This document shows positions 7,686 to 64,000 of a DNA stretch of 64,000 bases, in pieces. The stretch's first letter is position 1, and every line of letters starts with the position of its first letter. The notes under the pieces were generated by a model that was given only the letters and a program-made list of their open reading frames with translations, was not told the DNA's origin and made no database searches. Source of the stretch: Roseateles sp. Lineage in GTDB: Bacteria; Pseudomonadota; Gammaproteobacteria; Burkholderiales; Burkholderiaceae_C. The position numbers and the translations under genes are program-made. The stretch lies in contig NZ_JAFAGT010000045.1 of NCBI RefSeq assembly GCF_019237615.1, positions 1-64,000 of the forward strand, given 5' to 3'.

Positions 7686-8141
7686 TCAGCGGTAGTGCCG
7701 CGCCAGGCTCTCCGCCACGCAGACCGGCCTGCGCGCGCCCTCGGCCTCGATGGCCACCTCCACCGTCAGCTGCATCGCACCGCCGGCCACCGCGTCCATG
7801 GCCAGCAGCTTGAAGCCGGCGCGCAGCCGGCTGCCCACCGGCACCGGCGCCGTGAAGCGCACTTTGTTGAGGCCATAGTTGACGACCATGCGCGTCTCGC
7901 GCACCGCGAAGCCGGTCTCGAAGAAATAGGGGATCAGCGACAGCGTCAGGAAGCCATGCGCGATCGCCTCGCCGAAGGGGCCGGCCTTGGCGCGCTCGGG
8001 GTCGACATGGATCCACTGCCGGTCCTCGGTGGCCTCGGCGAAGGCGTTGACGCGTGCTTGGTCGACCGAGATCCAGTCGCTGTGGCCCAGGAGCTGGCCG
8101 GTCAGGGCCTGGAGGTCGGCAAGGGTCTCGAAGATGCGCAT
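7686..8141 (-). CDS. MaoC-like (R)-enoyl-CoA hydratase
   Basis: A 151-residue single hot-dog domain protein. The hydratase-2 signature is visible: AFAEATEDRQWIHVD followed by GPFGEAIAHGFLTLSL, with the Asp/His pair that hydrates trans-2-enoyl-CoA to (R)-3-hydroxyacyl-CoA. Family members supply PHA precursors or act in fatty-acid turnover; the substrate here is unknown. I start at the ATG at 8141, which gives the normal family N-terminus (MRIFETLADL), rather than at 8177. It faces away from kefF across a 52-bp gap and ends directly beside scpA. Confidence 0.85.
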   Translation of the reverse strand: MRIFETLADLQALTGQLLGHSDWISVDQARVNAFAEATEDRQWIHVDPERAKAGPFGEAIAHGFLTLSLIPYFFETGFAVRETRMVVNYGLNKVRFTAPVPVGSRLRAGFKLLAMDAVAGGAMQLTVEVAIEAEGARRPVCVAESLARHYR

Positions 8142-8193
8142 TGCGGGTGGCCCAGATGGGAGCTGTCGTGCGCGCACGTTAATCTAGCCGGCC

Positions 8194-8850
8194 ATGCCAG
8201 ACAGTAGCCCCCGCGACATCCTCGTCCTCGCCGCCCACCCGGACCTGGCCCGCTCCAACGCCACCCGTGCCATGCTCGGCGTCCTGCGCGCCTCGCCGGC
8301 GGCCGACCGTGTCGAGCTGCGGGACCTCTACCGCCTCTATCCGGACTTCCACATCCACGTCGAAGCCGAGCAGCGCGCGCTCGCGGCGGCGCGGCTGGTC
8401 GTCATGCTGCACCCGATCTACTGGTACAGCATGCCGGCGCTGCAGAAGCTCTGGCTGGACGACGTGCTGCGCCTGGGCTGGGCCTACGGCCCCGGCGGCA
8501 CGGCGCTGCGCGGCAAGGACTTCTGGCTCGTCACGTCCACCGGCGGCGGCATGGAGAGCTACGCGCCAGGCGGCCACAACCACCACCGAATGGACGAGTT
8601 CCTGCTGCCCTACGAACAGTCAGTCAAGACCTGCGGCATGCGCTACCTGCCGCCGCAGGTCCTGCACGCCGCGCACCGCGCAAGCGACGCCGAGATCCAC
8701 GCCCATGCCCGCCTGTTCGGCGAGCGACTGGCAAGCTACCCCGCCTGGAGCGCCTCGCTCGACGCGCCGGTGGCGGGGGACGAGCAGGAGGTGGCACTGG
8801 ACGAGCGGCCGCCGCTGTTCTCGTCGCTGGACGCGGGAGACGCCGAATGA
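8194..8850 (+). CDS. kefF: KefF-like NAD(P)H oxidoreductase, potassium-efflux ancillary protein
   Basis: A flavodoxin-fold quinone oxidoreductase of the KefF/MdaB type. The 218-residue protein has the N-terminal flavin-binding start ILVLAAHPDLARSNA and the central LHPIYWYSMPALQKLWLDDV segment seen in KefF. In E. coli KefF binds KefC and is needed for full glutathione-gated potassium efflux. The last 40 or so residues are acidic and not part of the usual fold, so it is longer than E. coli KefF. The stop overlaps the kefC start by 4 bp (ATGA), which supports translational coupling and the paired role. Confidence 0.9.
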   Translation: MPDSSPRDILVLAAHPDLARSNATRAMLGVLRASPAADRVELRDLYRLYPDFHIHVEAEQRALAAARLVVMLHPIYWYSMPALQKLWLDDVLRLGWAYGPGGTALRGKDFWLVTSTGGGMESYAPGGHNHHRMDEFLLPYEQSVKTCGMRYLPPQVLHAAHRASDAEIHAHARLFGERLASYPAWSASLDAPVAGDEQEVALDERPPLFSSLDAGDAE

Positions 8851-50451: not shown

Positions 50452-51198
50452 TCAATTGGCGGACTTTGACGCGGCATTCCGCCCGGGGCGGTAAAGCCAC
50501 ACGCTCTGGCCGCCCGGCAGTTGCCAGCTCGTCACAGGCGGCTGCTCAGGCACCGCGAAGTCCAGGCTGACCAGCCAGGCGTCGGGCGCCAGCTCCGCGC
50601 ATGCCTTGTCCCAGACGCGGGGCATGGATTCTGGCCGCTGGAACACATAGACCAGCGCAAACGGCGCCCAGTCGTCGGCCCACAGGTCGCCACGCCGCAC
50701 GCTGGCGCCGCCGGCGCGCCAGCGTGCCAGCAACGCCAGCGGGCGGCTCCATTCGACGCCTTCGACACGGGCCTGCGGATAGGCGCCGAGCAGCTCGCGC
50801 AGGCCGTCGCCCGCACCGCAGCCGGCGTCCAGCACGCGGGCGCCCGGCGCCAGCGGCGCATGCCCGGGCAGCGGCGCCAGCGCGCCGCGCGGCGTCGGAA
50901 ACAGGGGCGCGTCGCTCCACGCACGGCGCGGATAAAGCCACCACAGCAGCGCCAGCGCCAGCAGCCAGACCCATCCGCCGCCGGGCTGCCAGCCCAGCAG
51001 CAGCGCCGACACCGGGAAACCCAACGCCGAGATCAGCCGGCGCCAGGGCTGGCGGTACAACAGGGCCAGCGCGACGCCCAGCGCCGCTCCGGCGGCGAGC
51101 GCCACGTCCGGGTCCAGGTCCTTCAGCAGCAGATGCGCCAGCCAGGCCGCCAGCCAGATGAGCAGGGCAGACAGCGGCCAGGTGGTGATGAGGTTCAC
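50452..51198 (-). CDS. Membrane-anchored class I SAM methyltransferase
   Basis: A 248-residue protein with two to three N-terminal hydrophobic helices (about 5-95) and a cytoplasmic Rossmann methyltransferase domain; the SAM motif VLDAGCGAGDGLRELLGAYP is at about 120-139. The acceptor is unknown. It overlaps the preceding glycosyltransferase by 4 bp and, with it, trails flhDC closely, so it is likely read from the flhDC promoter. A role in methylating a surface or flagellar glycan is possible but not shown. Confidence 0.75.
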   Translation of the reverse strand: MNLITTWPLSALLIWLAAWLAHLLLKDLDPDVALAAGAALGVALALLYRQPWRRLISALGFPVSALLLGWQPGGGWVWLLALALLWWLYPRRAWSDAPLFPTPRGALAPLPGHAPLAPGARVLDAGCGAGDGLRELLGAYPQARVEGVEWSRPLALLARWRAGGASVRRGDLWADDWAPFALVYVFQRPESMPRVWDKACAELAPDAWLVSLDFAVPEQPPVTSWQLPGGQSVWLYRPGRNAASKSAN

Positions 51199-52250
51199 GG
51201 CCAGGGATGGGCGGCGCGCAGCGCGGCGGCCCCGGCCGCGCGGTCGGTGCCCTCCAGCACCAGGGCCAGGTTGTGCGCGGCGAGGAAGCTGCCCCGGCCG
51301 GCCACGGCGCCCGCCTGCTCGGGGCGCTCACCCAGCTCCAGGCAACGCTGCCAGGCGGCCTCGACCATGGGCAGCAGCTCTCCAGCCTGTTCGGGCTGCG
51401 TGGCGGCCAGGTCCAGCAGCAGGTCGCCCAGCGCAAAGAAGAAATCGGGCGACTCGGCGCCGACCTCCATCTGCGTCTGCGCGAAATCCACTGCGTCGGC
51501 ATGCCGGCCCAGGCATTTGAGGGCGAACAGGCGGCGCGACACCAGGTCCAGCCACCAGGGCGCGGCGATCGCGCCCGGCAGTTGGCAGGCGCGCGCGAAG
51601 GCATCCTCCGCGGCCTCATGCTCGTCGTAGACGGCGCAGTCCTTGCCGAGCTGGTAGCAGAGGTAGGCGTCTTCGGGCGCCTCGTCCAGCGCCTGCTCCA
51701 GCAGCCGGCGGTTGCGCCCGCGCTTGTCCGCCAGGCGCTCGGCGACATAGCCGTCATGCCCCACCACCAGCGGCAGCCGGCGCACAGGCAGGTCGTGCAG
51801 CGGCTGCTCGTGCACGCGGCCCGCATAGCGCACGGCGCCCGGCAGCACGCGGCTCAGCCAGGCGACGGCCTCGGCCTGCCGGCCCGGCGCCTGGTCGAAG
51901 CGGTCGCGCAGCTGCAGCACGCCGACGAAATCGGGTGGCGTGGCGCGCAGCGCCTGCAAGGCCTCGCCGCCTTCCATGAGCCATTCGTCGGCGTCCAGCA
52001 CCAGGCGCCAGTCCGCGTCGACCAGCGCCAGCGCGTGATTGCGGGCGGCAGCGAAATCGTCACACCAGGCGAAATGCGCCACGCGGGCGCCATGAGCGCG
52101 CGCGACCTGTGCCGTGGCGTCGCGCGAGCCGGTGTCCAGCACCAGCATCTCGTCAACCCAGGGGCGCACGCTGTCCAGCAGCCGCGCGATGCGCGGCGCC
52201 TCGTCGCGGGCGATGACAACGAGGGCGATGCGGTGGCTGGCGGTGCTCAC
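51195..52250 (-). CDS. GT2-family glycosyltransferase with TPR-like C-terminus
   Basis: A 351-residue protein with a GT-A domain at the N-terminus (LVVIARDEAPRIARLLDSV; LDTGSRDAT; DADWRLVLDADEW with the metal-binding DAD) and a helical TPR-like part (about 195-350). Such proteins transfer sugars to proteins or glycans at the cytoplasmic face. It begins 4 bp after the flhC stop codon and overlaps the methyltransferase, so it should be expressed with FlhDC. This makes a flagellin glycosyltransferase role attractive, but the acceptor is not known. Confidence 0.85.
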   Translation of the reverse strand: MSTASHRIALVVIARDEAPRIARLLDSVRPWVDEMLVLDTGSRDATAQVARAHGARVAHFAWCDDFAAARNHALALVDADWRLVLDADEWLMEGGEALQALRATPPDFVGVLQLRDRFDQAPGRQAEAVAWLSRVLPGAVRYAGRVHEQPLHDLPVRRLPLVVGHDGYVAERLADKRGRNRRLLEQALDEAPEDAYLCYQLGKDCAVYDEHEAAEDAFARACQLPGAIAAPWWLDLVSRRLFALKCLGRHADAVDFAQTQMEVGAESPDFFFALGDLLLDLAATQPEQAGELLPMVEAAWQRCLELGERPEQAGAVAGRGSFLAAHNLALVLEGTDRAAGAAALRAAHPWP

Positions 52251-52254
52251 GCGC

Positions 52255-52791
52255 TCAGTGCATCTGGATGCCGCCGGCCGCCTTGCCCTTGCCCGCGCGC
52301 GCCGGCGGGTTGCACAGGCCGCAGACGAAATGGCGGGCGATCTCGTGTGGATGGGTCACGAACTGGCCGTTGCACCTGGAGCAGCGGGTCAACGTCAACA
52401 TGCCGTTGTCGACGAACTTCACGAGGCGCCAGGCGCGCGTGACCGACAGCATGGCCTCCAGGCCCTGGGCCGTCGTCTGCTCCTGGTAGAGCTGGTAGGC
52501 CTTGATGACGGTGTCAATCTCGTCCATCTCCGCGGCCTTGTTCAGGTATTCGTGGATGTTCAGGAACAGGCTGGCGTGGATGTTGGGCTGCCATGTCATG
52601 AACCAGTCAGTCGAGAACGGCAGCTGGCCCTTGGACGGCGACTTGCCGCTCACTTCCTTGTACAGGCGCAACAGGCGCTCGTAGGACAGGTCGGTTTCGG
52701 ATTCCAGCACCTGCAGGCGGGCACCGAGGTGGATCAGCTGAACGGCACGCTCGATCTGCTTGGCTTCGGTGAGGATGCTCTTGACGCGCAT
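52255..52791 (-). CDS. flhC: Flagellar master regulator FlhC
   Basis: FlhC is the zinc-binding subunit of the FlhD4C2 complex that activates class II flagellar promoters. The 178-residue protein has the four-cysteine cluster CSRCNGQFVTHPHEIA... to CGLC (about 137-160) and the conserved LQVLESETDLSYERLLRLYK region. It lies 49 bp after flhD. Length is slightly below E. coli FlhC. Confidence 0.97.
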   Translation of the reverse strand: MRVKSILTEAKQIERAVQLIHLGARLQVLESETDLSYERLLRLYKEVSGKSPSKGQLPFSTDWFMTWQPNIHASLFLNIHEYLNKAAEMDEIDTVIKAYQLYQEQTTAQGLEAMLSVTRAWRLVKFVDNGMLTLTRCSRCNGQFVTHPHEIARHFVCGLCNPPARAGKGKAAGGIQMH

Positions 52792-52840
52792 GGTGGGCTC
52801 CGGAATCTATGAACTTTATGGCGGCGAAGGGGTCGCTGGC

Positions 52841-53161
52841 TCAGGCGTGCTCGTGGCGGCCGGCCATCAGGATGGAGGCGTGCAGGCGGCTGACGCTCTC
52901 GTTCGCGCCGGGCTTGCTGTGGTTGGTCAGCAGCCCCCACACCAGGTCGTCGCTCATGCGGAAGGCACACAGCAACGTGTTGCCGGAAGCGACCTTCATG
53001 ATCTGCGCCGGGCTCAGTGTGCCGATCAACGTGGCCGTGTCCTCGCTGATGCCCAAGCGGTAGAGCGCCTGCTCGCGGTCCGCACGGATCAGGCTCTGGG
53101 CCAGCATCAGGTAGGACAGGTTGGCTTCGCGGATCTCGTTGAGGATTTGCTCGGTGTTCAT
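52841..53161 (-). CDS. flhD: Flagellar master regulator FlhD
   Basis: FlhD partners FlhC to activate the flagellar cascade. The 106-residue protein starts MNTEQILNEIREANLSYLML and has the conserved REQALYRLGISEDTATLIGT. It heads flhD-flhC-glycosyltransferase-methyltransferase. Nothing in the sequence looks altered. Confidence 0.97.
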   Translation of the reverse strand: MNTEQILNEIREANLSYLMLAQSLIRADREQALYRLGISEDTATLIGTLSPAQIMKVASGNTLLCAFRMSDDLVWGLLTNHSKPGANESVSRLHASILMAGRHEHA

Positions 53162-53443: not shown

Positions 53444-54214
53444 ATGAAGGCAGTCATCCTCGCAGGCGGGCTGGGCACGCGGCTGGCGGAAGAGACCACG
53501 CTGCGCCCCAAGCCGATGGTCGAAGTGGGCGGGCGCCCGGTGCTCTGGCACATCCTGAAGACCTATTCGCATCACGGCATCAATGATTTCGTGATCTGCC
53601 TGGGCTACAAGGGCTATGTCATCAAGGAGTACTTCGCCAACTACTTTCTGCACATGTCGGACGTGACGTTCGACCTGGCCGAGAACCGCATGGAAATCCG
53701 CGACCGCCACTGCGAGCCCTGGCGTGTCACGCTGGTCGACACCGGCGAGGACTCGATGACGGGCGGGCGCCTCAAGCGCGTGCGCCACTACCTTGACGAC
53801 GAGAGCTTCTGCTTCACCTACGGCGACGGGCTGTCCGATGTGGATGTCCGGGCGCTGATTGCACACCACAAGGCCCAGGGCCGGCTCGCCACCGTGACGG
53901 CCGTGCAGCCACCGGGCCGCTTCGGCGCGCTCGGCATCACCGACCACCAGATCACCCATTTCACCGAGAAGCCCCAGGGCGACGGCGGCTGGGTCAACGG
54001 TGGCTTCTTCGTGCTGGAGCCGCAGGTGATCGACTACATCGCCGGTGACGCCACATCCTGGGAGGGCGATCCGCTGAACCGCCTGGCCGCCGAAGGTCAA
54101 CTGTCGGCCTTCCAGCACCCCGGCTTCTGGCAGCCCATGGACACGCTGCGCGACAAGGTCAGGCTCGAAGAGCTGTGGCAGACACACCAGGCCCCGTGGA
54201 AGGTATGGCGCTGA
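53444..54214 (+). CDS. rfbF: Glucose-1-phosphate cytidylyltransferase
   Basis: This enzyme makes CDP-glucose from CTP and glucose-1-phosphate, the first step to CDP-deoxy sugars. The 256-residue protein has the nucleotidyltransferase signature ([20 protein letters not shown] and [10 protein letters not shown]), YGDGLSDVD for metal and sugar binding, and the C-terminal [17 protein letters not shown]. Length and motifs match RfbF. The ATG follows GGGAG; it is the first gene of a nine-gene plus-strand run with 1- to 13-bp overlaps or short gaps. Confidence 0.96.
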
Positions 54215-55335
54215 TGAGCCAGCCTTTGTTCGCCGGGGTCTACGAAGGTCGCCGCGTGCTGGTGACCGGACATACCGGCTTCAAGGGCTCGTGGTTGGCG
54301 CTGTGGCTGCGGCAACTCGATGCCCAGGTGTGCGGGCTGGCCCTGCCGCCCGCCACCGAGCCCAGTCACCATGCCCTGCTGAATCTCGGCATCGAAGAAG
54401 CCTTCGTCGACCTGCGCGACGCCGACGGCGTGCGCCGTACCGTGCAAGCCTTGGCACCCGACATCGTCTTCCATCTGGCGGCCCAGCCCCTCGTGCGCCG
54501 CAGCTACGCCGAGCCGGCCGGCACGCTGGCGACCAATGTGATGGGGTTGGTGCACCTTTTCGAGGCCGTGCGCGCCACGCCATCGGTGCGCGCCGTCGTC
54601 AACGTCACCACCGACAAGTGCTACGCCAACCGGCACCAGGCCCAGGGCTACACCGAGGACGACGCCCTGGGCGGACACGATCCCTACAGCGCCTCGAAGG
54701 CCTGCGCGGAGATCGTCTCCGCCAGCTATCGCGCCAGCTTCCTGTCCAACGACGACAGCCGCGGCCACCCCGTGCTGCTGGCCACGGCCCGCGCGGGCAA
54801 CGTGATCGGTGGCGGCGACTGGTCGGAAGACCGCCTGATCCCCGACCTCGTGCGTGCCGCGCTCGCGGCCGAGCCTGCGCGGATCCGCCACCCCGGCTCG
54901 ACCCGACCCTGGCAGCACGTGCTGGAGCCGCTGGCAGGCTACCTGCTGCTGGGCCAGCAACTGCTGCAGGGGCGTGGCGAACAAGCCCAGGCCTGGAACT
55001 TCGGCCCCGACGAGGCCGGGCACCTGAGCGTGGGCGAGGTGGTGAGCGGCTTCTCGGCCCACTGGCCCTCGTTGCGCCACGAACTCGGCGGCCAGGACGC
55101 CACGCGGCACGAGGCCGCCCTGCTGCACCTGGATTGCGGCAAGGCCCGCGCACGTCTGGGCTGGCGCCCGGTCTGGGACGCGCCCACCTCCCTGGCGCGC
55201 ACCGCCCGCTGGTACCGTGCCTGGCACGAACGGGGCGAACGCCTCAGCCAGGCAGACCTAGATGCCTACGTCGAAGACGCCCGCCGGCATGGGCTGGCCT
55301 GGGCCGGGCAAACATCGGGATGGGTGCCTGCATGA
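54214..55335 (+). CDS. rfbG: CDP-glucose 4,6-dehydratase
   Basis: This SDR enzyme converts CDP-glucose to CDP-4-keto-6-deoxyglucose with bound NAD. The 373-residue protein has the NAD motif VTGHTGFKGSWLALW (about 16), the YxxxK catalytic pair in DPYSASKACAEI, and the conserved ARAGNVIGGGDWSEDRLIPD. The start at 54214 overlaps the rfbF stop codon (TGATG); an upstream ATG at 54205 is also possible. Together with rfbF it defines a CDP-activated sugar route. Confidence 0.96.
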   Translation: MSQPLFAGVYEGRRVLVTGHTGFKGSWLALWLRQLDAQVCGLALPPATEPSHHALLNLGIEEAFVDLRDADGVRRTVQALAPDIVFHLAAQPLVRRSYAEPAGTLATNVMGLVHLFEAVRATPSVRAVVNVTTDKCYANRHQAQGYTEDDALGGHDPYSASKACAEIVSASYRASFLSNDDSRGHPVLLATARAGNVIGGGDWSEDRLIPDLVRAALAAEPARIRHPGSTRPWQHVLEPLAGYLLLGQQLLQGRGEQAQAWNFGPDEAGHLSVGEVVSGFSAHWPSLRHELGGQDATRHEAALLHLDCGKARARLGWRPVWDAPTSLARTARWYRAWHERGERLSQADLDAYVEDARRHGLAWAGQTSGWVPA

Positions 55336-55883
55336 AGCTCCACCCCACGCCGCTGCCCGGTCTCTGGCAGATCAGCACCGAGCCGCGCGGCGACGCCCGC
55401 GGCCGCCTGACGCGCTTGCATTGCGAGCGGGAACTGGCCGCCATCCGCCCGCAATTGCACTTTGTGCAGACCAACCTTTCCTACACCGCGCAGCGTGGCA
55501 CGGTACGCGGGCTGCACTTCCAACGTGCCCCGGCGCTGGAAGCCAAGCTCATCCGCTGCCTGCGCGGCCGGGTGTTCGACGTGGCCGTCGACCTGCGCGC
55601 CGGGTCGGCGAGCTTCGGCCGCTGGTTCGGGCTGGAACTGGCGGCCGACAACGAGCAGCAGGTCTTCATCCCCGAAGGTTTCGCCCACGGCTTCCAGGCG
55701 CTGACGAACGACGTGGAACTGCTCTACCAGCACACCGCCGCCTACGCCCCCCGGCATGAGGGCGGGCTGCGTCCCGACGACCCGGCGCTGGCCATCGATT
55801 GGCCGCTGCCCATTGGCCAACTGTCCGACCGCGACCGCAGCCACCCCGCGCTGGATGCGGCCTTCGCGCCTTTGCAGGCCTGA
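55332..55883 (+). CDS. dTDP-4-dehydrorhamnose 3,5-epimerase-like sugar epimerase
   Basis: A 183-residue cupin-fold enzyme of the RmlC family (QTNLSYTAQRGTVRGLHFQR; KLIRCLRGRVFDVAVDLRAG; IPEGFAHGFQALTNDVELLY). The catalytic His is in GLHFQ and the second-site Tyr and Asp residues appear conserved. In this context it should act on CDP-4-keto-6-deoxyglucose, as in the ascarylose-type routes, rather than on dTDP sugars. It overlaps rfbG by 4 bp. Whether it epimerises at C3, C5 or both cannot be read from sequence. Confidence 0.85.
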   Translation: MKLHPTPLPGLWQISTEPRGDARGRLTRLHCERELAAIRPQLHFVQTNLSYTAQRGTVRGLHFQRAPALEAKLIRCLRGRVFDVAVDLRAGSASFGRWFGLELAADNEQQVFIPEGFAHGFQALTNDVELLYQHTAAYAPRHEGGLRPDDPALAIDWPLPIGQLSDRDRSHPALDAAFAPLQA

Positions 55884-55917
55884 AGAGTCCGACAACCGAC
55901 AGAAGAGAAGGAACCCC

Positions 55918-57141
55918 GTGCGCTGCCGCCACTGCCACACCCCGCTCGCCGAAGTCTTTGCCGACCTGGGCAGCGCACCGCCCTCCAACGCCTTCCTGCG
56001 CGCCGAAGACCTGAACGCGCCGGAGCTTTACTTCCCGCTGAAGGTGTTCAGTTGCGGCCACTGCCGGCTGGTGCAGGTCGACGAACTGCAACGCCACGAC
56101 GCGCTGTTCTCCAGCGACTACGTCTACTTCTCGTCCTACTCCAGTTCCTGGCTGGCACACGCCCGCGCCTATGTGGAGCACGCCACGCAACGCCTGGACC
56201 TGGGCCCGCAATCGCTGGTGCTGGAAGTGGCCTCCAACGACGGCTACCTGCTGCAGTACGTGCAGCAGCTCGGCATCCCCTGCGTGGGCATAGAACCCAC
56301 GGCCAGCACCGCGGCCGCGGCGCGCGCCAGGGGCATCGAAAGCATCGAGCGATTCTTCGGCGCATCGTTCGCCGCCGAGTTCGCGCGCACGCGGCGCCCG
56401 GCCGACCTGGTCGTGGGCAACAACGTGCTGGCCCATGTACCCGACATCAATGACTTCGTTGCCGGCCTGACAGCCGTGCTGGCCCCCGGCGGCTGCGTGA
56501 CGATGGAGTTCCCGCACCTGCTGAGCCTGGTGCGCGAGGCCCAGTTCGACACCATCTACCACGAACACTTTTCCTACCTGGGCCTTGCCACGGTGCAGCG
56601 CATCTTCGCCGCCGCCGGCCTGCAGATCTGGGACGTGGAACGCCTGCCAACCCATGGCGGCTCGCTGCGCATCTGGGCGCAGCACAGCGGCAGCCCCCGC
56701 GCGCCGCTACCCAGCGTGACCGAGCTGCTGGCCGAAGAAGCCGCCGCCGGCATGCTGGAGCCGGCCTTCTACGCCAGCCTGCAACCCCGCGCCGAAACCA
56801 TCAAGTACAAGCTGCTCAGCTGGTTGATCGAGCAGCGCCGCGCGGGCAAGAAGGTAGCCGCCTACGGTGCAGCCGCCAAGGGCAACACCTTGCTGAACTG
56901 GGCCGGCGTGCGCCCTGACCTGCTGCCCTACGTCGTCGATGCCTCGCCCCACAAGCAGGGTCGCTTTCTGCCGGGCTCGCGGATCCCTGTCGTGGCGCAA
57001 GCGCATCTGCGTGAGCATCGACCGGACTACGTGCTGATCCTGCCGTGGAACTTGCGCGACGAGATCTCCTCCCAACTGCGCTACATCGGTGACTGGGGCG
57101 GGCGTTGTGTGGTCGCCATTCCGGAGCTGCAAGTGCTATGA
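55918..57141 (+). CDS. Sugar C-methyltransferase, TylC3/NovU-like
   Basis: A 407-residue, three-part methyltransferase. An N-terminal zinc-binding domain has CRHCHTPL and CGHC; the SAM-binding domain has EVASNDGYLLQYVQQLGIP (about 102); the C-terminal Methyltransf_14 domain has GAAAKGNTLLNWAGV (about 318). EFPHLLSLVREAQFDTIYHE is the family's active-site segment. This family puts a methyl group on C3 of 4-keto-6-deoxy sugars, giving branched sugars such as mycarose, virenose or yersiniose-type precursors. The start is GTG at 55918, the first codon of the zinc domain. Confidence 0.9.
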   Translation: MRCRHCHTPLAEVFADLGSAPPSNAFLRAEDLNAPELYFPLKVFSCGHCRLVQVDELQRHDALFSSDYVYFSSYSSSWLAHARAYVEHATQRLDLGPQSLVLEVASNDGYLLQYVQQLGIPCVGIEPTASTAAAARARGIESIERFFGASFAAEFARTRRPADLVVGNNVLAHVPDINDFVAGLTAVLAPGGCVTMEFPHLLSLVREAQFDTIYHEHFSYLGLATVQRIFAAAGLQIWDVERLPTHGGSLRIWAQHSGSPRAPLPSVTELLAEEAAAGMLEPAFYASLQPRAETIKYKLLSWLIEQRRAGKKVAAYGAAAKGNTLLNWAGVRPDLLPYVVDASPHKQGRFLPGSRIPVVAQAHLREHRPDYVLILPWNLRDEISSQLRYIGDWGGRCVVAIPELQVL

Positions 57142-58244
57142 GTGCCGACCGTATCCACTACACGCTGCCGTCCATCACCGAGCTGGAAATCCGCTACGTC
57201 GAGGACGCCATCCGCCACGGCTGGGGCGAACGATGCTACGAGTACATCCAGCGCTTCGAGGCTGCGTTCGCCAAGCACCTGGGCGTGCCCTACGCTATCG
57301 CAACCTCGAGCTGCACCGGCGCGCTGCACATGGGCATGGCGGCGCTGGGCATCGCGGCCGGCGACGAGGTCATCCTGGCCGACACCAACTGGATCGCCTC
57401 GGCAGCCCCCATCACCTACCTGGGCGCCAAGCCCGTCTTCGTGGACGTGCTGCCCGACAGCTGGTGCCTCGACCCCGCCAGGGTCGAAGCCGCCATCACA
57501 CCAGCCACCAAGGCCATCCTCGCGGTGCACCTGTACGGCAACCTGTGCAACATGGATGCACTGCTGGACATCGGCGCTCGACACGGCATCCCAGTCATCG
57601 AGGACGCCGCCGAAGCCCTCGGCTCCAGCCTGCGCGGCGCGGCCGCCGGGGCCATGGGCGCCTTCGGCACCTTCTCCTTCCACGGCACCAAGACCCTCAC
57701 GACCGGCGAGGGCGGCATGTTCATCACGCAGGATCGAGCGCTGTACGAGCGCGTCCTGACCCTGTCCAACCATGGCCGTGCAGCCGGGCAGGCCAGGCAG
57801 TTCTGGCCCGACCTGCTGGGGTTCAAGTACAAGATGTCCAATCTGCAAGCGGCCGTGGGCTGTGCGCAGGTGGAGCGACTGGACGAACTGATCGCGGCCA
57901 AGCGCCGGGTCTTCATGGCCTACCGCGAGCGACTGGCCGACCTGCCGCTGACGATGAACCCCGAAGGCGCCGAGCAGCGCAACGGCTTCTGGATGCCCAC
58001 CATCGTCGTGGACGAGGGCGTGCGCTTCGACCGTGAAGCCCTGCTGGCGGCCTTCCGGGCCGACCGCATCGACGGTCGCGTGTTTTTCTGGCCGCTGAGC
58101 CAGTTGCCGATGTTCACGCCAAGACCCGAGAACCGCGTCGCCTACGGTCTGCCCGCGCGCGCACTGAACCTGCCCAGCTACCACGACCTGGGCGAGGCAC
58201 AGATCGAACGCGTCGTGGCCCATGTGCGGTCTGCAATCCGCTGA
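57138..58244 (+). CDS. DegT/DnrJ/EryC1-family sugar aminotransferase
   Basis: A 368-residue PLP enzyme that transfers an amino group to a keto sugar. The PLP lysine is K185 in SFHGTKTLTTGEGGM, and the substrate-binding YKMSNLQAAVGCAQ and VIEDAAEALGSS are conserved. It most resembles perosamine/viosamine-type C4 aminotransferases, so a 4-amino-4,6-dideoxy product is the first guess; an RfbH-type C3 dehydratase is unlikely because the Lys is kept. It overlaps the methyltransferase by 4 bp. Confidence 0.88.
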   Translation: MSADRIHYTLPSITELEIRYVEDAIRHGWGERCYEYIQRFEAAFAKHLGVPYAIATSSCTGALHMGMAALGIAAGDEVILADTNWIASAAPITYLGAKPVFVDVLPDSWCLDPARVEAAITPATKAILAVHLYGNLCNMDALLDIGARHGIPVIEDAAEALGSSLRGAAAGAMGAFGTFSFHGTKTLTTGEGGMFITQDRALYERVLTLSNHGRAAGQARQFWPDLLGFKYKMSNLQAAVGCAQVERLDELIAAKRRVFMAYRERLADLPLTMNPEGAEQRNGFWMPTIVVDEGVRFDREALLAAFRADRIDGRVFFWPLSQLPMFTPRPENRVAYGLPARALNLPSYHDLGEAQIERVVAHVRSAIR

Positions 58245-58254
58245 GGACACCACG

Positions 58255-59100
58255 ATGCCAACCCCTTTGCTGAGCGAACAGCAGCGCGAACAGTTCCACC
58301 GTGATGGCCTGCTGATCCTGCCGGGCTTCTACGACGCACATGCCGACATCGAGCCCGTGCAGCGCGCCATCCACGCCGCCATTGGCCAGGTCATGCAGCG
58401 TCACGGCGTGCCGGATGAGCGCCCTCCGCTGGACCCTGCCCACTTCGATGCCGGCTACCAGGATCTCATCCGGCGCGATCGCAGTTGGGGTGCCGAGGTC
58501 TATGACGCCGTCAAGCAGCTGCCGCCCTTTGTACGACTGGTGGCCCATCCCGCACATGAACGCCTGATGCGTGAACTGCGGCCCGGCAGCGAGCCGGGCA
58601 TTGCCGGCGGCGGCTACGGCATCCGCATCGACAACCCGGGCGAGGAGCGTTTTCGCGCGCAATGGCACCAGGAGTACCCGGCCCAGCTGCGCAGCCTCGA
58701 TGGGCTGGTGTTCTGGAGCCCCTTGGTCCCGGTAGACGAAGCGCTCGGTCCAGTGCGCTTCTGTCCGGGCTCGCAGCGCGAGGGACCGCTGCCGGTCTAC
58801 CGCGGCAGTGGTGACGGGCGCAGCGGCGCGTACGCGCTGATGCTGGCCAACCAGGAGGCTCTGCTGTCACGCTATGCGCAGGTCGCGCCCCTCTGCGCGC
58901 CGACAGACCTCGTCATCATCGACTTCCTGGTGCTGCACGCTTCGGGCTACAACCGAAGCCAGCGCTCCCGCTGGTCGATGCAGTTTCGCTACTTCAACTT
59001 TGCGGACGCGACCGGCCGCAGCCACGGCTGGAAGGGCTCCTTCGCCGCCGGCCAGGACTTCAGCCTGATCCACCCTGAACTGTGCGTTGACGCGCCCTGA
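58255..59100 (+). CDS. PhyH-like Fe(II)/2-oxoglutarate dioxygenase
   Basis: A 281-residue protein of the phytanoyl-CoA dioxygenase superfamily. Iron ligands are likely His and Glu in QWHQEYPAQL (about 141) and a distal His in VLHASGYNRS, with an Arg a few residues on for 2-oxoglutarate. It probably hydroxylates a sugar or its acyl group. Such genes occur in LPS and flagellin glycan clusters, but the substrate is unknown. The ATG at 58255 follows GAGGAC. Confidence 0.8.
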   Translation: MPTPLLSEQQREQFHRDGLLILPGFYDAHADIEPVQRAIHAAIGQVMQRHGVPDERPPLDPAHFDAGYQDLIRRDRSWGAEVYDAVKQLPPFVRLVAHPAHERLMRELRPGSEPGIAGGGYGIRIDNPGEERFRAQWHQEYPAQLRSLDGLVFWSPLVPVDEALGPVRFCPGSQREGPLPVYRGSGDGRSGAYALMLANQEALLSRYAQVAPLCAPTDLVIIDFLVLHASGYNRSQRSRWSMQFRYFNFADATGRSHGWKGSFAAGQDFSLIHPELCVDAP

Positions 59101-59107
59101 CCCCATC

Positions 59108-60274
59108 ATGCTCTGCAACGTCTGCCAGGCGCCTCTCGGCGCTCCCCTCTACGAGTCACGCGGCAAGCTCTCGCTGACCTCGCTGTGCGAGCTCAGGCCG
59201 GGCCGCACGCGCGTGTGGTGCTGCGACCGCTGTGGCCATCTGCAGGGGGAGCCGCTACCCGACACGGCGCAGTACTACGCAAGCGACTACCGCATCCTGC
59301 TGGACCACGACGACGAGGACCAGATCTACGACACCGAGCGTACCGCGGACGGCGGCGAGCGCATCGTCTACCGCACCCAGCACCAGTTGCGCCTGTTGCT
59401 GGAACGCCTGCCACTGCCCGAAGGTGCACGCCTGCTGGACTACGGCTGCGCCAAGGCTGCGATGCCGCGCCTGCTGGCCGCCGAGCGTCCCGACCTGCAA
59501 CTGCACCTGTTCGACGTCAGCGAGATGTACCGCAGCCATTGGGACCGCCTGCTGCCGCGCGAGCGCCAGGCGGTGAACGAGGCACCTGCCGGCTGGCACG
59601 GCAGCTTCGACGCGGTGATCTCCTTCTTCGCACTTGAGCACATCCCCGCGCCCATCGCGAGCGTGGCCCATGTGGCGGCGCTGCTGAAGGCGGGCGGTAG
59701 CTTCTACGGCGTCGTGCCCTGCACAGTCGGCAACCCGGCGGACTTCATCGTCGCCGACCATGTGAACCACTTCACCACCGCCTCGCTGCACCGCCTGCTG
59801 GCCGACGCCGGCTTCGGCGCCATCTGCATCGAGCCCGACGTGCATCGCGGCGCGCTGGTGTTCCGTGCCGTCAAGGCAGGCGTGGCCGCACTCGGCCCGG
59901 AGCCGTCCGTCGTGCGCCCGCAGGCCCAGGCCCTCGCACGCTTCTGGAGCGAGCTGAGCGATCGCATCGCGGCCGCCGAGCACGCCGCGGGCGACGTGCC
60001 GGTCGCAATCTACGGCTCGGGCGTCTACGGCGCCCACATTGCTGCCAGCCTCGCGCACCCCGAGCGGCTACGCTGCTTCCTGGACCGCAATCCCTTCCAG
60101 CAGGGCAAGGCCCTGTTCGAACGGCCGGTGCTGGCCCCAGAGCAACTGCCAGATGATGTGACACAGCTCTACGTGGGCCTGAACCCCTCCATCGCGCGGC
60201 AGGCGCTGTCCGACCAACCATGGCTGGCACGCAGCCGAGCACGTCCCTTCTTCCTCGACGGAGGTGCCCCTTGA
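59108..60274 (+). CDS. SAM-dependent methyltransferase with zinc-ribbon N-terminus
   Basis: A 388-residue protein: an N-terminal four-Cys motif (CNVC at 3-6, CDRCG at about 41), a SAM domain (LLDYGCAKAAMPRLLAAERP; SFDAVISFFALEHIPAP) and a C-terminal half with a second Rossmann-like motif (VAIYGSGVYGAHIAASLAHP). It is related to but distinct from the TylC3-like enzyme at 55918. It may O- or N-methylate the sugar or acyl chain. The ATG at 59108 is preferred to the TTG at 59087, which lies inside the PhyH gene. Confidence 0.82.
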   Translation: MLCNVCQAPLGAPLYESRGKLSLTSLCELRPGRTRVWCCDRCGHLQGEPLPDTAQYYASDYRILLDHDDEDQIYDTERTADGGERIVYRTQHQLRLLLERLPLPEGARLLDYGCAKAAMPRLLAAERPDLQLHLFDVSEMYRSHWDRLLPRERQAVNEAPAGWHGSFDAVISFFALEHIPAPIASVAHVAALLKAGGSFYGVVPCTVGNPADFIVADHVNHFTTASLHRLLADAGFGAICIEPDVHRGALVFRAVKAGVAALGPEPSVVRPQAQALARFWSELSDRIAAAEHAAGDVPVAIYGSGVYGAHIAASLAHPERLRCFLDRNPFQQGKALFERPVLAPEQLPDDVTQLYVGLNPSIARQALSDQPWLARSRARPFFLDGGAP

Positions 60275-60798
60275 TCGAGTCGGCCCAGCTACGCCTGCGC
60301 GCCTGGCGGGAGGACGACATCGCGACACTGCACCTGCTGCGCAACGACGTGGCGCTGCAGGCCCAGTTGCTCGCGCGCGTTCGCGGCAGCGATGCAGCCC
60401 AGGTGCGGCAATGGCTGCAGCTGCGCAGCAGCGCTCCGGACAGCCTGCTCTGGGTCATCGCCGCACGCGAAGGCGACATCGCTCTGGGCTATGTGCAGGT
60501 CACCGGCCTGGACGCCATCGACCGGCGCGCCGAACTGGGCATCTGCCTGGCACCGGCTTCGCAGGGGCGCGGACATGGTCGGGCGGCAATCGCGGCGCTG
60601 CTGCCCTATCTGCGCCGCACCTGGGGCCTGCGCAAGCTGAGCCTGCGCGTGCGCGCCGACAACGCGCCGGCGCTGCGCTGCTACGCGAGTCTGGGCTTCC
60701 AGCCCTGCGGCCGGCTGCGCGAGCATGTCTTCATTGACGACGCCTGGCACGACCTGGTGCTGATGGAGGTCTTCCTGGAGACCGCATGCCCGGCATAG
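60271..60798 (+). CDS. GNAT-family N-acyltransferase
   Basis: A 175-residue acetyltransferase of the RimJ/RimL type, with acyl-CoA-binding motif GICLAPASQGRGHGRAAIAA and C-terminal ALRCYASLGFQPCGRLREHV. In this cluster it most simply N-acylates the amino group placed by the aminotransferase. The start is a TTG at 60271, chosen because GGAGG lies just upstream and it overlaps the previous stop codon (TTGA). It overlaps the next gene by 13 bp. Confidence 0.88.
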   Translation: MIESAQLRLRAWREDDIATLHLLRNDVALQAQLLARVRGSDAAQVRQWLQLRSSAPDSLLWVIAAREGDIALGYVQVTGLDAIDRRAELGICLAPASQGRGHGRAAIAALLPYLRRTWGLRKLSLRVRADNAPALRCYASLGFQPCGRLREHVFIDDAWHDLVLMEVFLETACPA

Positions 60799-61514
60799 TC
60801 ATCTCGCAGTCCATGCTGTTCCCCTGGGTCGGCCTGCTGGAGCAGGTGCGCCAGGCCGACGTGTTCGTGCACTACGACGACGTGCAGTTCTCCAAGGGCA
60901 GCTTCGTCAACCGCGTACAGATCAAGACGGCCGATGGCCAGCGATGGCTGACCGTGCCACTGCCCGGCCTGCAGCTGGGTCAGCGCATAGACGCCGTGCG
61001 GCCGGCGCCATCGGCGCAGTGGCGCGAAAACCATCTCGCGCTGCTGGCGCGCAGCTTCCGGGCTGCACCGCACGCGGCCGACGCGCTCTCCCTGGCCCGG
61101 GACATCTATGCCCAGGAGTACGCCAGCATCGGCGCACTGGCGCGCGCCTCGCTGATGGCGCTGGTCCGCTACTTCGGGCTGGAAGCCGGCCGGCGCTTCG
61201 TGGATGTGGCCGATCTGGGAGTTTCCGGTACAAGCAGCGCCCGTGTGCTGGCCGTGGTTCGCCAACTTGGCGGCACGGACTACATCACCGGCCATGGCGC
61301 CGCGCGTTACCTCGCCCACGACGAGTTCGAGGCCCAAGGGGTGACGGTGCGATACATGGACTATCTGCGCCTGCCCTATCCGCAGTCCCATGGGGCATTC
61401 AGTCCATACGTATCCGGGCTTGATCTGGTCGCTCACTGTGGCCGCGACGGCTCGCGCTATATCGCGTCCGGCACTGTGGCGTGGCAGGAATTCCTGAAGC
61501 GCTCAGCGGGCTGA
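60786..61514 (+). CDS. WbqC-like family protein
   Basis: A 242-residue protein of the WbqC family. The family start is visible (ISQSMLFPWVGLLEQVRQAD, then FVHYDDVQFSKGSFVNRVQI), and the C-terminal half keeps TDYITGHGAARYL. WbqC-like proteins occur in O-antigen and flagellin glycan clusters and are thought to modify amino sugars (for example with amino-acid or acyl groups); the reaction is not settled. It closes the plus-strand sugar cluster and converges on a minus-strand glycosyltransferase. Confidence 0.88.
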   Translation: MPGIVISQSMLFPWVGLLEQVRQADVFVHYDDVQFSKGSFVNRVQIKTADGQRWLTVPLPGLQLGQRIDAVRPAPSAQWRENHLALLARSFRAAPHAADALSLARDIYAQEYASIGALARASLMALVRYFGLEAGRRFVDVADLGVSGTSSARVLAVVRQLGGTDYITGHGAARYLAHDEFEAQGVTVRYMDYLRLPYPQSHGAFSPYVSGLDLVAHCGRDGSRYIASGTVAWQEFLKRSAG

Positions 61515-61533
61515 ACCCTGGCGCCATGCGCGC

Positions 61534-62763
61534 TCAGGCGACGAACTTGCGCATCAGGTCGCGCTCCAGCACCAGCCGCCCGCCGAAGCTGGCGGGCAGC
61601 GCCTCGCGGCTGACCGCATCGCCCAGGCCGAACACCAGCGTCTGTGCATCCGGATCCCCATGCTCGGCCACCGTCGTGGCGAACTGCACAGGCAGGCGCG
61701 CCCTCTCCTGCACGAGCTGGCGCAGCGGAGCCGGAAAATGGCCCACGCAGAGCAGCTTGCTCATGCCTCGGTTGAGCTCCTCGTCGGTGGCGATGAAGCT
61801 GACCGCCGCATGGGTCGCCAGCACCGGCAGTTGCACCGGCAGCAACTGCTCGGCCCCCATGGCTTTAAGCCGGTAGGCCAGGTAGTAGGTATCGACTGCA
61901 TCACGTTGCTGATGCAGTCGCAGCCGCACCGCCACCGAGATCCGACTGGCGATCAGATCCTGGATTCGCAGCAGAAACTCGACACGCCGCTGCGAGGTCA
62001 GCTGCGGCAGGGCGCGGCCCAACACATGTTCCAGCCCGGCGCGATAGCGATCCCAGGCGTGTTCGGCTTCGCTCAGGCCGGTCTGCTCGCGCCGGTGGTC
62101 GGCAAAGTAGTTCGTGATGGAGACGTAGAACGGGTCCTTCAGGAACAGCACCTGGGCGTGACTGGCGAACTCGGCCGAATGCACAAACGCGTAGAACGCC
62201 TGCTCGGACACTCGCGGCATCACGACCCGCAGAATCTCGGTGCGATAGACCGCAATCTCGGGAAATATCCCGTGGTTCAGCAGGGTGTCCAGCAGCTTGT
62301 CATAGTCACCCTGCTCCACCAACACGTCGTCGCCCTGTCGGTAGAACTGCCCACGCTCCTCGCCCTGGACCAGATCGAACAACTTCCACGGCGCGTAGGC
62401 CACGCCTGCCTGGGGCAGCGCCTCCATGACCGTGACCGTCTGCGCCAGTTGGGCGCCCAGCAGTGCGTCGTCATCGGCCACGTAGACGATGTAGCGGCCG
62501 CGCGCGTGGGTCAGCAGATAGTGCCAGTTGGGGCCGCCGCCCAGGTTGCTCGCATGGCGGTGCCAGCGCAGCGGCAGGCGTTCGCGGTACTTCTCCAGCA
62601 CCTCCGGGGTTGCGTCGGGCGAGGCGTTGTCGCCGACGAACACCTCGAAGCTGTAGGGAAAGTCAGCCATCTGCCCGCACAGCATCTCCAGCAGCGAGTC
62701 CAGGTAGCGCGCCCGGTTGAAGGTCGGCACGATGATGGTGAGGATGGGCGAGACATCTGTCAT
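61534..62763 (-). CDS. GT2-family glycosyltransferase
   Basis: A 409-residue protein with an N-terminal GT-A domain (LTIIVPTFNRARYLDSLLEM; FVGDNASPDATPEVLEKYRE; YIVYVADDDALLGAQ with the DDD metal site) and an uncharacterised C-terminal half of about 180 residues with no clear motif. It probably transfers a sugar to the glycan or to protein. The ATG at 62763 gives the domain-normal N-terminus. It follows the O-GlcNAc-transferase-like gene by 20 bp and could be co-transcribed with it. Confidence 0.85.
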   Translation of the reverse strand: MTDVSPILTIIVPTFNRARYLDSLLEMLCGQMADFPYSFEVFVGDNASPDATPEVLEKYRERLPLRWHRHASNLGGGPNWHYLLTHARGRYIVYVADDDALLGAQLAQTVTVMEALPQAGVAYAPWKLFDLVQGEERGQFYRQGDDVLVEQGDYDKLLDTLLNHGIFPEIAVYRTEILRVVMPRVSEQAFYAFVHSAEFASHAQVLFLKDPFYVSITNYFADHRREQTGLSEAEHAWDRYRAGLEHVLGRALPQLTSQRRVEFLLRIQDLIASRISVAVRLRLHQQRDAVDTYYLAYRLKAMGAEQLLPVQLPVLATHAAVSFIATDEELNRGMSKLLCVGHFPAPLRQLVQERARLPVQFATTVAEHGDPDAQTLVFGLGDAVSREALPASFGGRLVLERDLMRKFVA

Positions 62764-62783
62764 GGCTTCTTTCGGCAGCGGGT

Positions 62784-64000
62784 TCAGGCCGTCAGCGGCT
62801 TCGCCGTCAACGCTTCGGGAGACAGGCCGGCTCGGTGGCGCCCCCACATGCGCTCGTACAGCGCCTCCAGGTCGCGGGCGAAGCCCTTGGCGTCGTACAG
62901 CGGTGCATCGTCGCGCGCCTGCGCGAGCCGCGCACGCAACACGCCGCGGCGCTCAGGCAGGGCCGCCAGCTCGCAGACCTGGTCGACATAGGCCTGAGGC
63001 GAATCACACACCAGTTCGGGCAGGCCCACGGCACGCAGCAGGCTTTCGCTGACACGGCCCGCAAAGTTGCTCCCGCGCAGCGTCACCACCGGCACGCCGG
63101 CCCACAACGCGTCGCTGGTGGTGGTGTGGCCGTTGCAGGGCCAGCTGTCCAGCGCCAGGTCGGCCGCGCCCAGACGGCGCAGATGGTCGGCCAGCTTGGC
63201 TCTCGGCATGAAGATCAGGCGCTCTGGAGCCACACCGCGGGCTTGGGCTTGGCGGCGCAGCTCCGCATCAGGCTCGTCCCCCCCCGTCAACTGCCACAGC
63301 ACGGCTTGCGGCAGGCGGCGCAGGATTTCCATCCACGCGTCGAACAGCGGCGGATTCAGCTTGGCCGTCTGGTTGGCGCTGACCAGCACCAGCGCATCGT
63401 CAGGCAAGCCCAGCTCGCTGCGCGCCGGCGGTGTGGCGCGTTCGCGCAGGCCGTCGTTGGGCTGATAGCAATGCGGCATCTGGGCGATCTTCTCGCTGTA
63501 CCAGGGCGCATCGGCCAGCGGTGTGACGATGGGGTCGCCAATGATGTAGTCCACTTCACGGGCGCCGCAACTACCTGGAAAGCCGAGCCATGCCACCTGT
63601 ATCGGCGCAGGACGATGGGCCAGCATGGTCAGGCGGCTGCCGCCCGTGTGTCCCTTGAGATCCACGAGGATGTCCACCCCCAGTTCGCGTACGCGGCTGG
63701 CCATGTCGGCCAGGCTCAAGCGGCTCATGTCCTCGAAGCGATCCCCCACCCGCAGAAGGCGCTGGCGCAGCGCGGAGCCGTCGTCTTCGCCATGCGACAG
63801 CAAGCTGACCTCGAAGCGTTCGCGGTCGTGGCTTTCCAGCACCTGCGTGATCAGCGAAGCCGTGGCGTGGCCATGGAAGTCATTGGAGAGATAGGCCACG
63901 TGAAGACGCCGCCCCTCGGCCGGGCTGCGCACCGCCGCTGGCATGGGAGAGATGCCCCGGCACTGATGCTGCGACGCCAGCCTGGCCACCGCCAGCAGCT
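62784..64000 (-). CDS. O-GlcNAc transferase (SPINDLY/OGT)-like protein, partial
   Basis: The frame stays open to the right edge, so the N-terminus (usually TPR repeats) lies outside. The visible 405 residues are the catalytic region: VAYLSNDFHGHATASLITQV with a conserved His, VDILVDLKGHTGGSRLTMLA, RPAPIQVAWLGFPGSCG and the nucleotide-sugar-binding DLALDSWPCNGHTTTSDALW. Bacterial members glycosylate Ser/Thr of proteins, including flagellins in some species. Next to the flagellar and sugar genes this makes flagellin a reasonable but unproven target. Confidence 0.88.
   Translation of the reverse strand, partial: LLAVARLASQHQCRGISPMPAAVRSPAEGRRLHVAYLSNDFHGHATASLITQVLESHDRERFEVSLLSHGEDDGSALRQRLLRVGDRFEDMSRLSLADMASRVRELGVDILVDLKGHTGGSRLTMLAHRPAPIQVAWLGFPGSCGAREVDYIIGDPIVTPLADAPWYSEKIAQMPHCYQPNDGLRERATPPARSELGLPDDALVLVSANQTAKLNPPLFDAWMEILRRLPQAVLWQLTGGDEPDAELRRQAQARGVAPERLIFMPRAKLADHLRRLGAADLALDSWPCNGHTTTSDALWAGVPVVTLRGSNFAGRVSESLLRAVGLPELVCDSPQAYVDQVCELAALPERRGVLRARLAQARDDAPLYDAKGFARDLEALYERMWGRHRAGLSPEALTAKPLTA

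What the first reader, a model, noticed from the sequence alone, without database searches (positions are those of the whole stretch)
53444..64000. CDP-sugar cluster for a C-methylated, N-acylated amino sugar beside the flagellar regulon
RfbF and RfbG should give CDP-4-keto-6-deoxyglucose. The next genes are an RmlC-like epimerase, a TylC3-like C-methyltransferase, a DegT aminotransferase, a PhyH dioxygenase, a second methyltransferase, a GNAT enzyme and WbqC, nearly all overlapping. RfbH (for 3,6-dideoxy sugars) is absent. The set predicts an unusual branched 4-amino-4,6-dideoxyhexose with an acyl group that may be hydroxylated or methylated. An OGT-like enzyme and a GT2 follow, and flhDC is directly upstream. 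I do not recognise this exact combination.
Basis: partly seen in the sequence, partly recalled or inferred. Interest (0 to 1): 0.8.

Follow-up and report, generated by a model that had tools for sequence, protein, structure and literature searches.

The report
Sugar-making gene cassette beside flagellin genes
Nine neighbouring genes appear to build a rare branched amino sugar, and because they lie between the flagellum master switch and the flagellin genes, the sugar is probably used to decorate the bacterium's swimming filament; relatives of the cassette recur in other bacteria with one exchangeable part.

The parts
53444..54214 (+). rfbF, glucose-1-phosphate cytidylyltransferase
   Evidence: TIGR02623 471.5 bits, cut-off 300; only match over the cut-off in the genome
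54214..55335 (+). rfbG, CDP-glucose 4,6-dehydratase
   Evidence: TIGR02622 447 bits, cut-off 278; only match over the cut-off in the genome
55332..55883 (+). RmlC-like 3(,5)-epimerase of the 4-keto sugar
   Evidence: PF00908; TIGR01221 160 bits, cut-off 156; best solved relative NovW
55918..57141 (+). sugar 3-C-methyltransferase (cmt)
   Evidence: PF08421/PF08484; MtmC, KijD1, TcaB9 at E 1.6e-69 or lower; YHEH motif at 214-217
57138..58244 (+). DegT 4-aminotransferase
   Evidence: PF01041 396 bits; best solved relative perosamine synthetase; below the RfbH cut-off
58255..59100 (+). PhyH-type Fe(II)/2-oxoglutarate dioxygenase
   Evidence: PF05721; H138, D/E140 and H228 kept in 20 of 20 aligned rows (that these bind iron is recalled)
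59108..60274 (+). MT2, divergent three-domain sugar C-methyltransferase-like enzyme
60271..60798 (+). GNAT N-acyltransferase (exchangeable capping enzyme)
   Evidence: PF13302; formyltransferase or ATP-grasp instead in other loci
60786..61514 (+). WbqC, BshC-like putative amino-acid ligase
61534..62763 (-). GT2 glycosyltransferase, candidate transferase for this sugar
   Evidence: PF00535; in 2 of 40 relatives, own and G017, where it again adjoins rfbF-rmlC-cmt-degT and fliC; 36-41% identical relatives in 6 of 6 Ralstonia-type loci; no match in the 20 kb of G033
62784..64000 (-). TPR + GT41 (OGT/SPINDLY-like) transferase; frame runs beyond the window end, to 64844 at most
   Evidence: PF13844 and TPR; relative in 18 of 20 genomes of the genus, own included
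52255..53161 (-). flhC (52255-52791) and flhD (52841-53161), flagellar master regulator, upstream border
51195..52250 (-). second GT2 (tprGT), flagellin-linked candidate
   Evidence: PF00535; beside the flhDC/OGT block in eight same-genus loci; two relatives flank the cassette in each of six Ralstonia-type loci

Best explanation
The nine genes are an acquired nucleotide-sugar cassette at the flagellin locus. RfbF and RfbG make CDP-4-keto-6-deoxyglucose; the RmlC-like enzyme epimerises C3 (perhaps C5); cmt puts a methyl on C3; DegT aminates C4. PhyH and MT2, an adjacent pair wherever MT2 was found, add one further oxidation and one methylation, position unknown. WbqC, with the fold of bacillithiol synthase BshC, joins an amino acid to the 4-amine, and the GNAT caps the result with an acyl group; GNAT, formyltransferase and ATP-grasp replace one another between loci. 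The sugar is then transferred in the cytoplasm to flagellin by the GT2 and/or the TPR-GT41 protein, before export. Shown here: gene content, families, motifs, predicted folds, exchange of the capping enzyme, position at flagellin in several arrangements. Inferred: the product, the order of steps, the WbqC reaction, and flagellin as acceptor.
Against: 31 of the 40 loci show no flagellin in the stretch held (7 of the 31 are under 12 kb), and the three other MT2 loci of the order sample had none within 20-34 kb: the cassette is not flagellar by nature. Five of six Ralstonia-type loci lack cmt, so C-methylation is not a fixed part. G033 has no gt2 and no OGT match in its 20 kb. No flagellar sigma-28-like promoter above chance. 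Other genomes of the genus keep OGT and tprGT without this cassette, so those transferases are not specific to it. WbqC-BshC likeness rests on fold alone (11% identity; no BshC model among Pfam matches), and near the 20 sampled WbqC genes no GNAT or formyltransferase of these kinds was found and ATP-grasp in only 2. No product, motility or mass data.
Confidence: 0.58

Rival explanations
1. The cassette feeds the O-antigen or another surface polysaccharide and lies beside the flagellar genes only by chance of insertion.
For: Relatives in Rhizobium, Verrucomicrobiota and three other genomes of the order have no flagellin in the stretch held. The genome holds O-antigen ligase/polymerase-type proteins on contigs C9, C5 and C27.
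Against: No flippase, polymerase or chain-length gene among the eleven genes of 53444-64844; the cassette adjoins flagellin and protein-type transferases; flagellin-linked relatives in G033, Ralstonia, Cupriavidus and G017.
Confidence: 0.2
2. WbqC is not a ligase; the GNAT simply acetylates the 4-amine, giving an N-acetyl 3-C-methyl sugar, and WbqC is an accessory protein.
For: GNATs and formyltransferases act directly on 4-amino sugars in known pathways (recalled); WbqC-BshC likeness is by fold only; the 20 sampled WbqC loci mostly lack these capping enzymes.
Against: WbqC has a predicted adenylate-enzyme-like fold with 39 invariant positions in 28 rows, and is often directly beside an aminotransferase (10 of 18 within 80 bp); an N-acetylglycyl 4-amino sugar is known in E. 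coli O121 (PMC3210612, passages).
Confidence: 0.3
3. PhyH and MT2 modify the aminoacyl residue rather than the sugar ring.
For: The best solved relative of PhyH is a leucine hydroxylase; ATP-grasp loci are one clade in the PhyH and MT2 trees; G017 has ring genes without PhyH, MT2 or WbqC.
Against: MT2 keeps the nucleotide-sugar methyltransferase architecture; the cap swaps in Rhizobium with little change in PhyH and MT2.
Confidence: 0.35

Closest known systems
Caulobacter FlmG flagellin glycosylation system (PMC7591256, passages seen)
   Same: TPR + GT-B transferase with its sugar pathway modifies flagellin
   Different: sugar is pseudaminic acid; here a CDP-hexose route
E. coli O121: N-acetylglycyl 4-amino-4,6-dideoxyglucose (PMC3210612, passages seen; that the wbq names come from the O121 cluster is recalled)
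   Same: 4-amino-4,6-dideoxyhexose with an acyl-aminoacyl group; WbqC-type protein (recalled)
   Different: dTDP route and O-antigen, no C-methylation, PhyH or MT2 (all recalled)
Dickeya zeae WH1 fliA-fliC insertion (PMC9650423, passage seen)
   Same: WbqC, DegT and methyltransferase genes inserted beside fliC
   Different: listed as gene content only; no CDP-sugar genes, PhyH or function named in the passage
TcaB9, MtmC, KijD1 sugar C-3'-methyltransferases
   Same: cmt by sequence and motif; MT2 by predicted fold
   Different: antibiotic dTDP-sugars (recalled); MT2 has Val where they have a catalytic Tyr
BshC, bacillithiol synthase
   Same: predicted fold of WbqC over 220 residues
   Different: adds cysteine to a glucosamine conjugate (recalled); identity only 11%
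Virenose route of Coxiella (PMC3539893, passages seen)
   Same: predicted 3-C-methyl-6-deoxyhexose made from a 4-keto sugar
   Different: GDP or dTDP proposed, reduced at C4, not aminated

Membership tests
Flagellin glycosylation island | sugar genes adjacent to flagellin or flagellar genes | tested here: met
   flhDC on one side, flagellin on the other
Flagellin glycosylation island | candidate protein glycosyltransferase in the locus | tested here: met
   TPR-GT41 and GT2
Flagellin glycosylation island | glycan on flagellin | not testable with these tools
   needs mass spectrometry
O-antigen / capsule locus | flippase, polymerase or ABC exporter in the cluster | tested here: not met
   none among the eleven genes of 53444-64844; genes further left were not all annotated
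CDP-3,6-dideoxyhexose pathway | RfbH/E1 dehydrase | tested here: not met
   DegT scores 164 bits against the RfbH cut-off 423; closest solved relative perosamine synthetase. Only the cluster was tested, not the whole genome
Sugar C-3'-methyltransferase (cmt) | three domains and Y-x-E-H motif | tested here: met
Sugar C-3'-methyltransferase (MT2) | three-domain fold | tested here: met
Sugar C-3'-methyltransferase (MT2) | catalytic His181, Tyr222, Glu224, His225 of TcaB9 | tested here: not met
   both His kept, Glu to Asp, Tyr to Val, by profile alignment through cmt; not by superposed coordinates
BshC ligase (WbqC) | BshC core fold | tested here: met
BshC ligase (WbqC) | sequence membership of the BshC family | tested here: inconclusive
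   no BshC model among Pfam matches of 28 members at E up to 10; filters drop weak matches
BshC ligase (WbqC) | amino-acid ligation to an amino sugar | not testable with these tools
   needs an assay

The most novel reading that the evidence does not exclude
Flagellin in this bacterium, and in some other Burkholderiales with relatives of the cassette, is decorated with a previously undescribed class of sugar: a 4-amino-4,6-dideoxyhexose made on CDP (3-C-methylated here and in G033, without that step in most Ralstonia-type loci), oxidised and methylated again by the PhyH-MT2 pair, with an amino acid joined to C4 by WbqC, a new family of BshC-like ligases, and a terminal cap set by an interchangeable enzyme (acyl, formyl or ATP-grasp-added). 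WbqC would thereby gain its first function across many surface-sugar loci.
Probability: 0.3. Interest if true: 0.8.

Novelty: new variant of a known kind. Interest (0 to 1): 0.62.

Why it matters
It gives an assayable function to WbqC, a widespread family (52 of 300 order genomes) that one paper calls functionally uncharacterized (PMC5532660, passage), shows a modular code for the amide cap of a bacterial amino sugar, and points to flagellin sugars outside the pseudaminic, legionaminic and viosamine kinds (those kinds recalled).

Tried and rejected
RfbH-type deoxygenation: rejected on the DegT score. Sigma-28 promoter search on L006: 3 matches against a mean of 1.9 by chance, no support; sigma-70/terminator scan at or below chance. 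Phage relatives of cmt: 7 records, all under 60% identity. PDB sequence search for WbqC: nothing credible. GNAT against PDB: spermidine acetyltransferase-like, not informative on substrate. The CmcI-like gene, in 26 of 40 loci, is absent from the window's cluster and no match was found in the genome, so it is not needed here. Idea that PhyH/MT2 act on the cap: weakened by the Rhizobium swap. The tree comparison is uneven: ATP-grasp rows are 10 of 40 in mt2 and phyH but 4-5 of 25-33 in the others; mt2 and phyH were built by the careful method and again by the quick one, the others by the quick one. WbqC neighbourhood test: 20 of 63 listed matches were fetched, chosen by score and contig length, and the 14 control stretches are arbitrary genome regions, not polysaccharide loci. 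In those 20, PhyH, MT2, GNAT and formyltransferase were 0 and ATP-grasp 2. Foldseek E-values were not obtained; only the VIA-align second look was. Literature: 10 searches listed no paper on this gene set; several lists were cut, and subscription papers and preprints are not held. PMC8268093: one passage seen, of no use.
Full report
What is there. The window is part of contig C78 (66,352 bases) of a 4.8-Mb genome. From 53444 to 61514 nine genes run on the plus strand: rfbF, rfbG, rmlC, cmt, degT, phyH, MT2, gnat, wbqC. Five of eight junctions overlap by 1-13 nt; the others leave 34, 10 and 7 nt. A GT2 (61534-62763) and a TPR-GT41 gene (from 62784, past the window end, to 64844 at most) follow on the minus strand. 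Beyond lie a flagellin gene (65022-65885 in window numbering) and a second, 97% identical over 98 residues, cut by the contig end. flhD/flhC are on the other side. G+C of the cassette (0.684) is close to that of window 21669-52791 (0.699), so composition does not betray it.

An insertion at a flagellin locus. In eight same-genus loci (L074-L081) the order is motB, motA, a methyltransferase, tprGT, one or two OGT-like genes, then flhC, flhD and three flagellin matches, with none of the nine genes in the 12-20 kb held; L080 ends before flhC and L076 after flhD. MT2 is in 0 of 19 other same-genus genomes and 2 of 60 relatives in all (own and G033); in an order-wide sample it is in 4 of 399. In G033, another genus of the family, all nine genes stand in two opposed blocks, rfbF-rfbG-rmlC-cmt-degT against phyH-MT2-gnat-wbqC-CmcI, next to flagellin genes; neither gt2 nor OGT was matched in its 20 kb. 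Flagellin also lies in the stretch of 6 of 6 Ralstonia-type loci (five of which lack cmt) and of Cupriavidus L031 (ATP-grasp in place of GNAT); flagellin in all is in 9 of 40 loci. Against a purely flagellar role, 31 of 40 loci show none (7 of them under 12 kb), and the three other MT2 loci of the order sample (L097-L099) have none within 20-34 kb. So the cassette is a portable sugar pathway used at flagellin in some Burkholderiales and, it seems, in other surface loci elsewhere.

The two modules. Ring genes (rfbF, rmlC, cmt, degT, 75-82% identical) occur in same-genus G017 without phyH, MT2, gnat or wbqC, between fliC/OGT and flhA/flhB/fliR, with a hexapeptide acyltransferase after degT and a gt2 relative (56%) next to it. 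No rfbG stands there and none passes the cut-off in that genome (about 91% complete). gt2 is in 2 of 40 relatives searched, own and G017 (G033 was not in that sample), and 36-41% relatives stand in 6 of 6 Ralstonia-type loci, so it is my first candidate for the cognate transferase; its absence near the G033 cassette speaks against a fixed link. Six loci (five Hoeflea, one Aliiroseovarius on a 9-kb contig) carry phyH-MT2 with MT3, ATP-grasp and a metallophosphoesterase and no wbqC; of nine loci without rfbF in the stretch, 8 of 9 genomes hold an rfbF over the cut-off elsewhere.

An exchangeable amide-capping enzyme. Over 43 loci (38, plus L083, L097, L098, L099 and the window) the cluster holds a GNAT in 27 (one cut by a contig end), an ATP-grasp in 11, a formyltransferase-like protein in 4 and none of the three in 1 (L098, which has hexapeptide, methyltransferase and glyoxalase-like genes); no cluster has two. 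GNAT and formyltransferase share the place beside wbqC; the ATP-grasp stands elsewhere in the cluster, so its 'slot' is one of function. In L035-L039 a further formyltransferase-profile match lies about 5.7 kb beyond the end of the cluster. Within Rhizobium, L035 and L038 have the formyltransferase and L036, L037, L039 the GNAT between the CmcI gene and wbqC; across the swap PhyH is 91.2-95.4% and MT2 82.9-92.5% identical. ATP-grasp loci form one clade in the MT2 and PhyH trees (1 change, 10 of 40 rows), but need 2-3 changes in the rfbF, rfbG, rmlC, cmt, degT and wbqC trees; row numbers are unequal, so this is supportive only.

Conclusion. The product, step order and acceptor remain inferences.

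Noticed in passing
L035-L039, about 7700-8420: GNAT and formyltransferase exchanged at the same place between otherwise closely similar Rhizobium clusters.
   Followed up: partly
L105:7231-14523: Same-genus genome G017 has a ring-gene cassette with rfbF but no rfbG between flagellin and flhA/flhB; no CDP-dehydratase over the cut-off in that genome.
   Followed up: partly
L074-L081: Same-genus genomes carry one or two OGT-like genes beside flhDC, some with a nearby frame beginning MIPRTLH (GT32-like by recall): a hot spot of flagellin glycosyltransferase variety.
   Followed up: partly
L082: G007 has three DegT matches, a distant WbqC match, an OGT-like gene and a flagellin in one stretch: another, unlike island.
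   Followed up: no
L150: One of the 20 WbqC loci sampled in the order has DegT, WbqC and a flagellin match (53% identity) in 12.6 kb, without the present cassette.
   Followed up: no
L028:11151-13555: PhyH-MT2 followed by a methyltransferase, an ATP-grasp and a metallophosphoesterase; an ATP-grasp of this kind is in 11 of 43 loci: a companion module I could not name.
   Followed up: partly
window 50452-52250: A methyltransferase and tprGT lie between motA and flhC, and stand beside motA in eight same-genus loci; possible older flagellin modification genes.
   Followed up: partly
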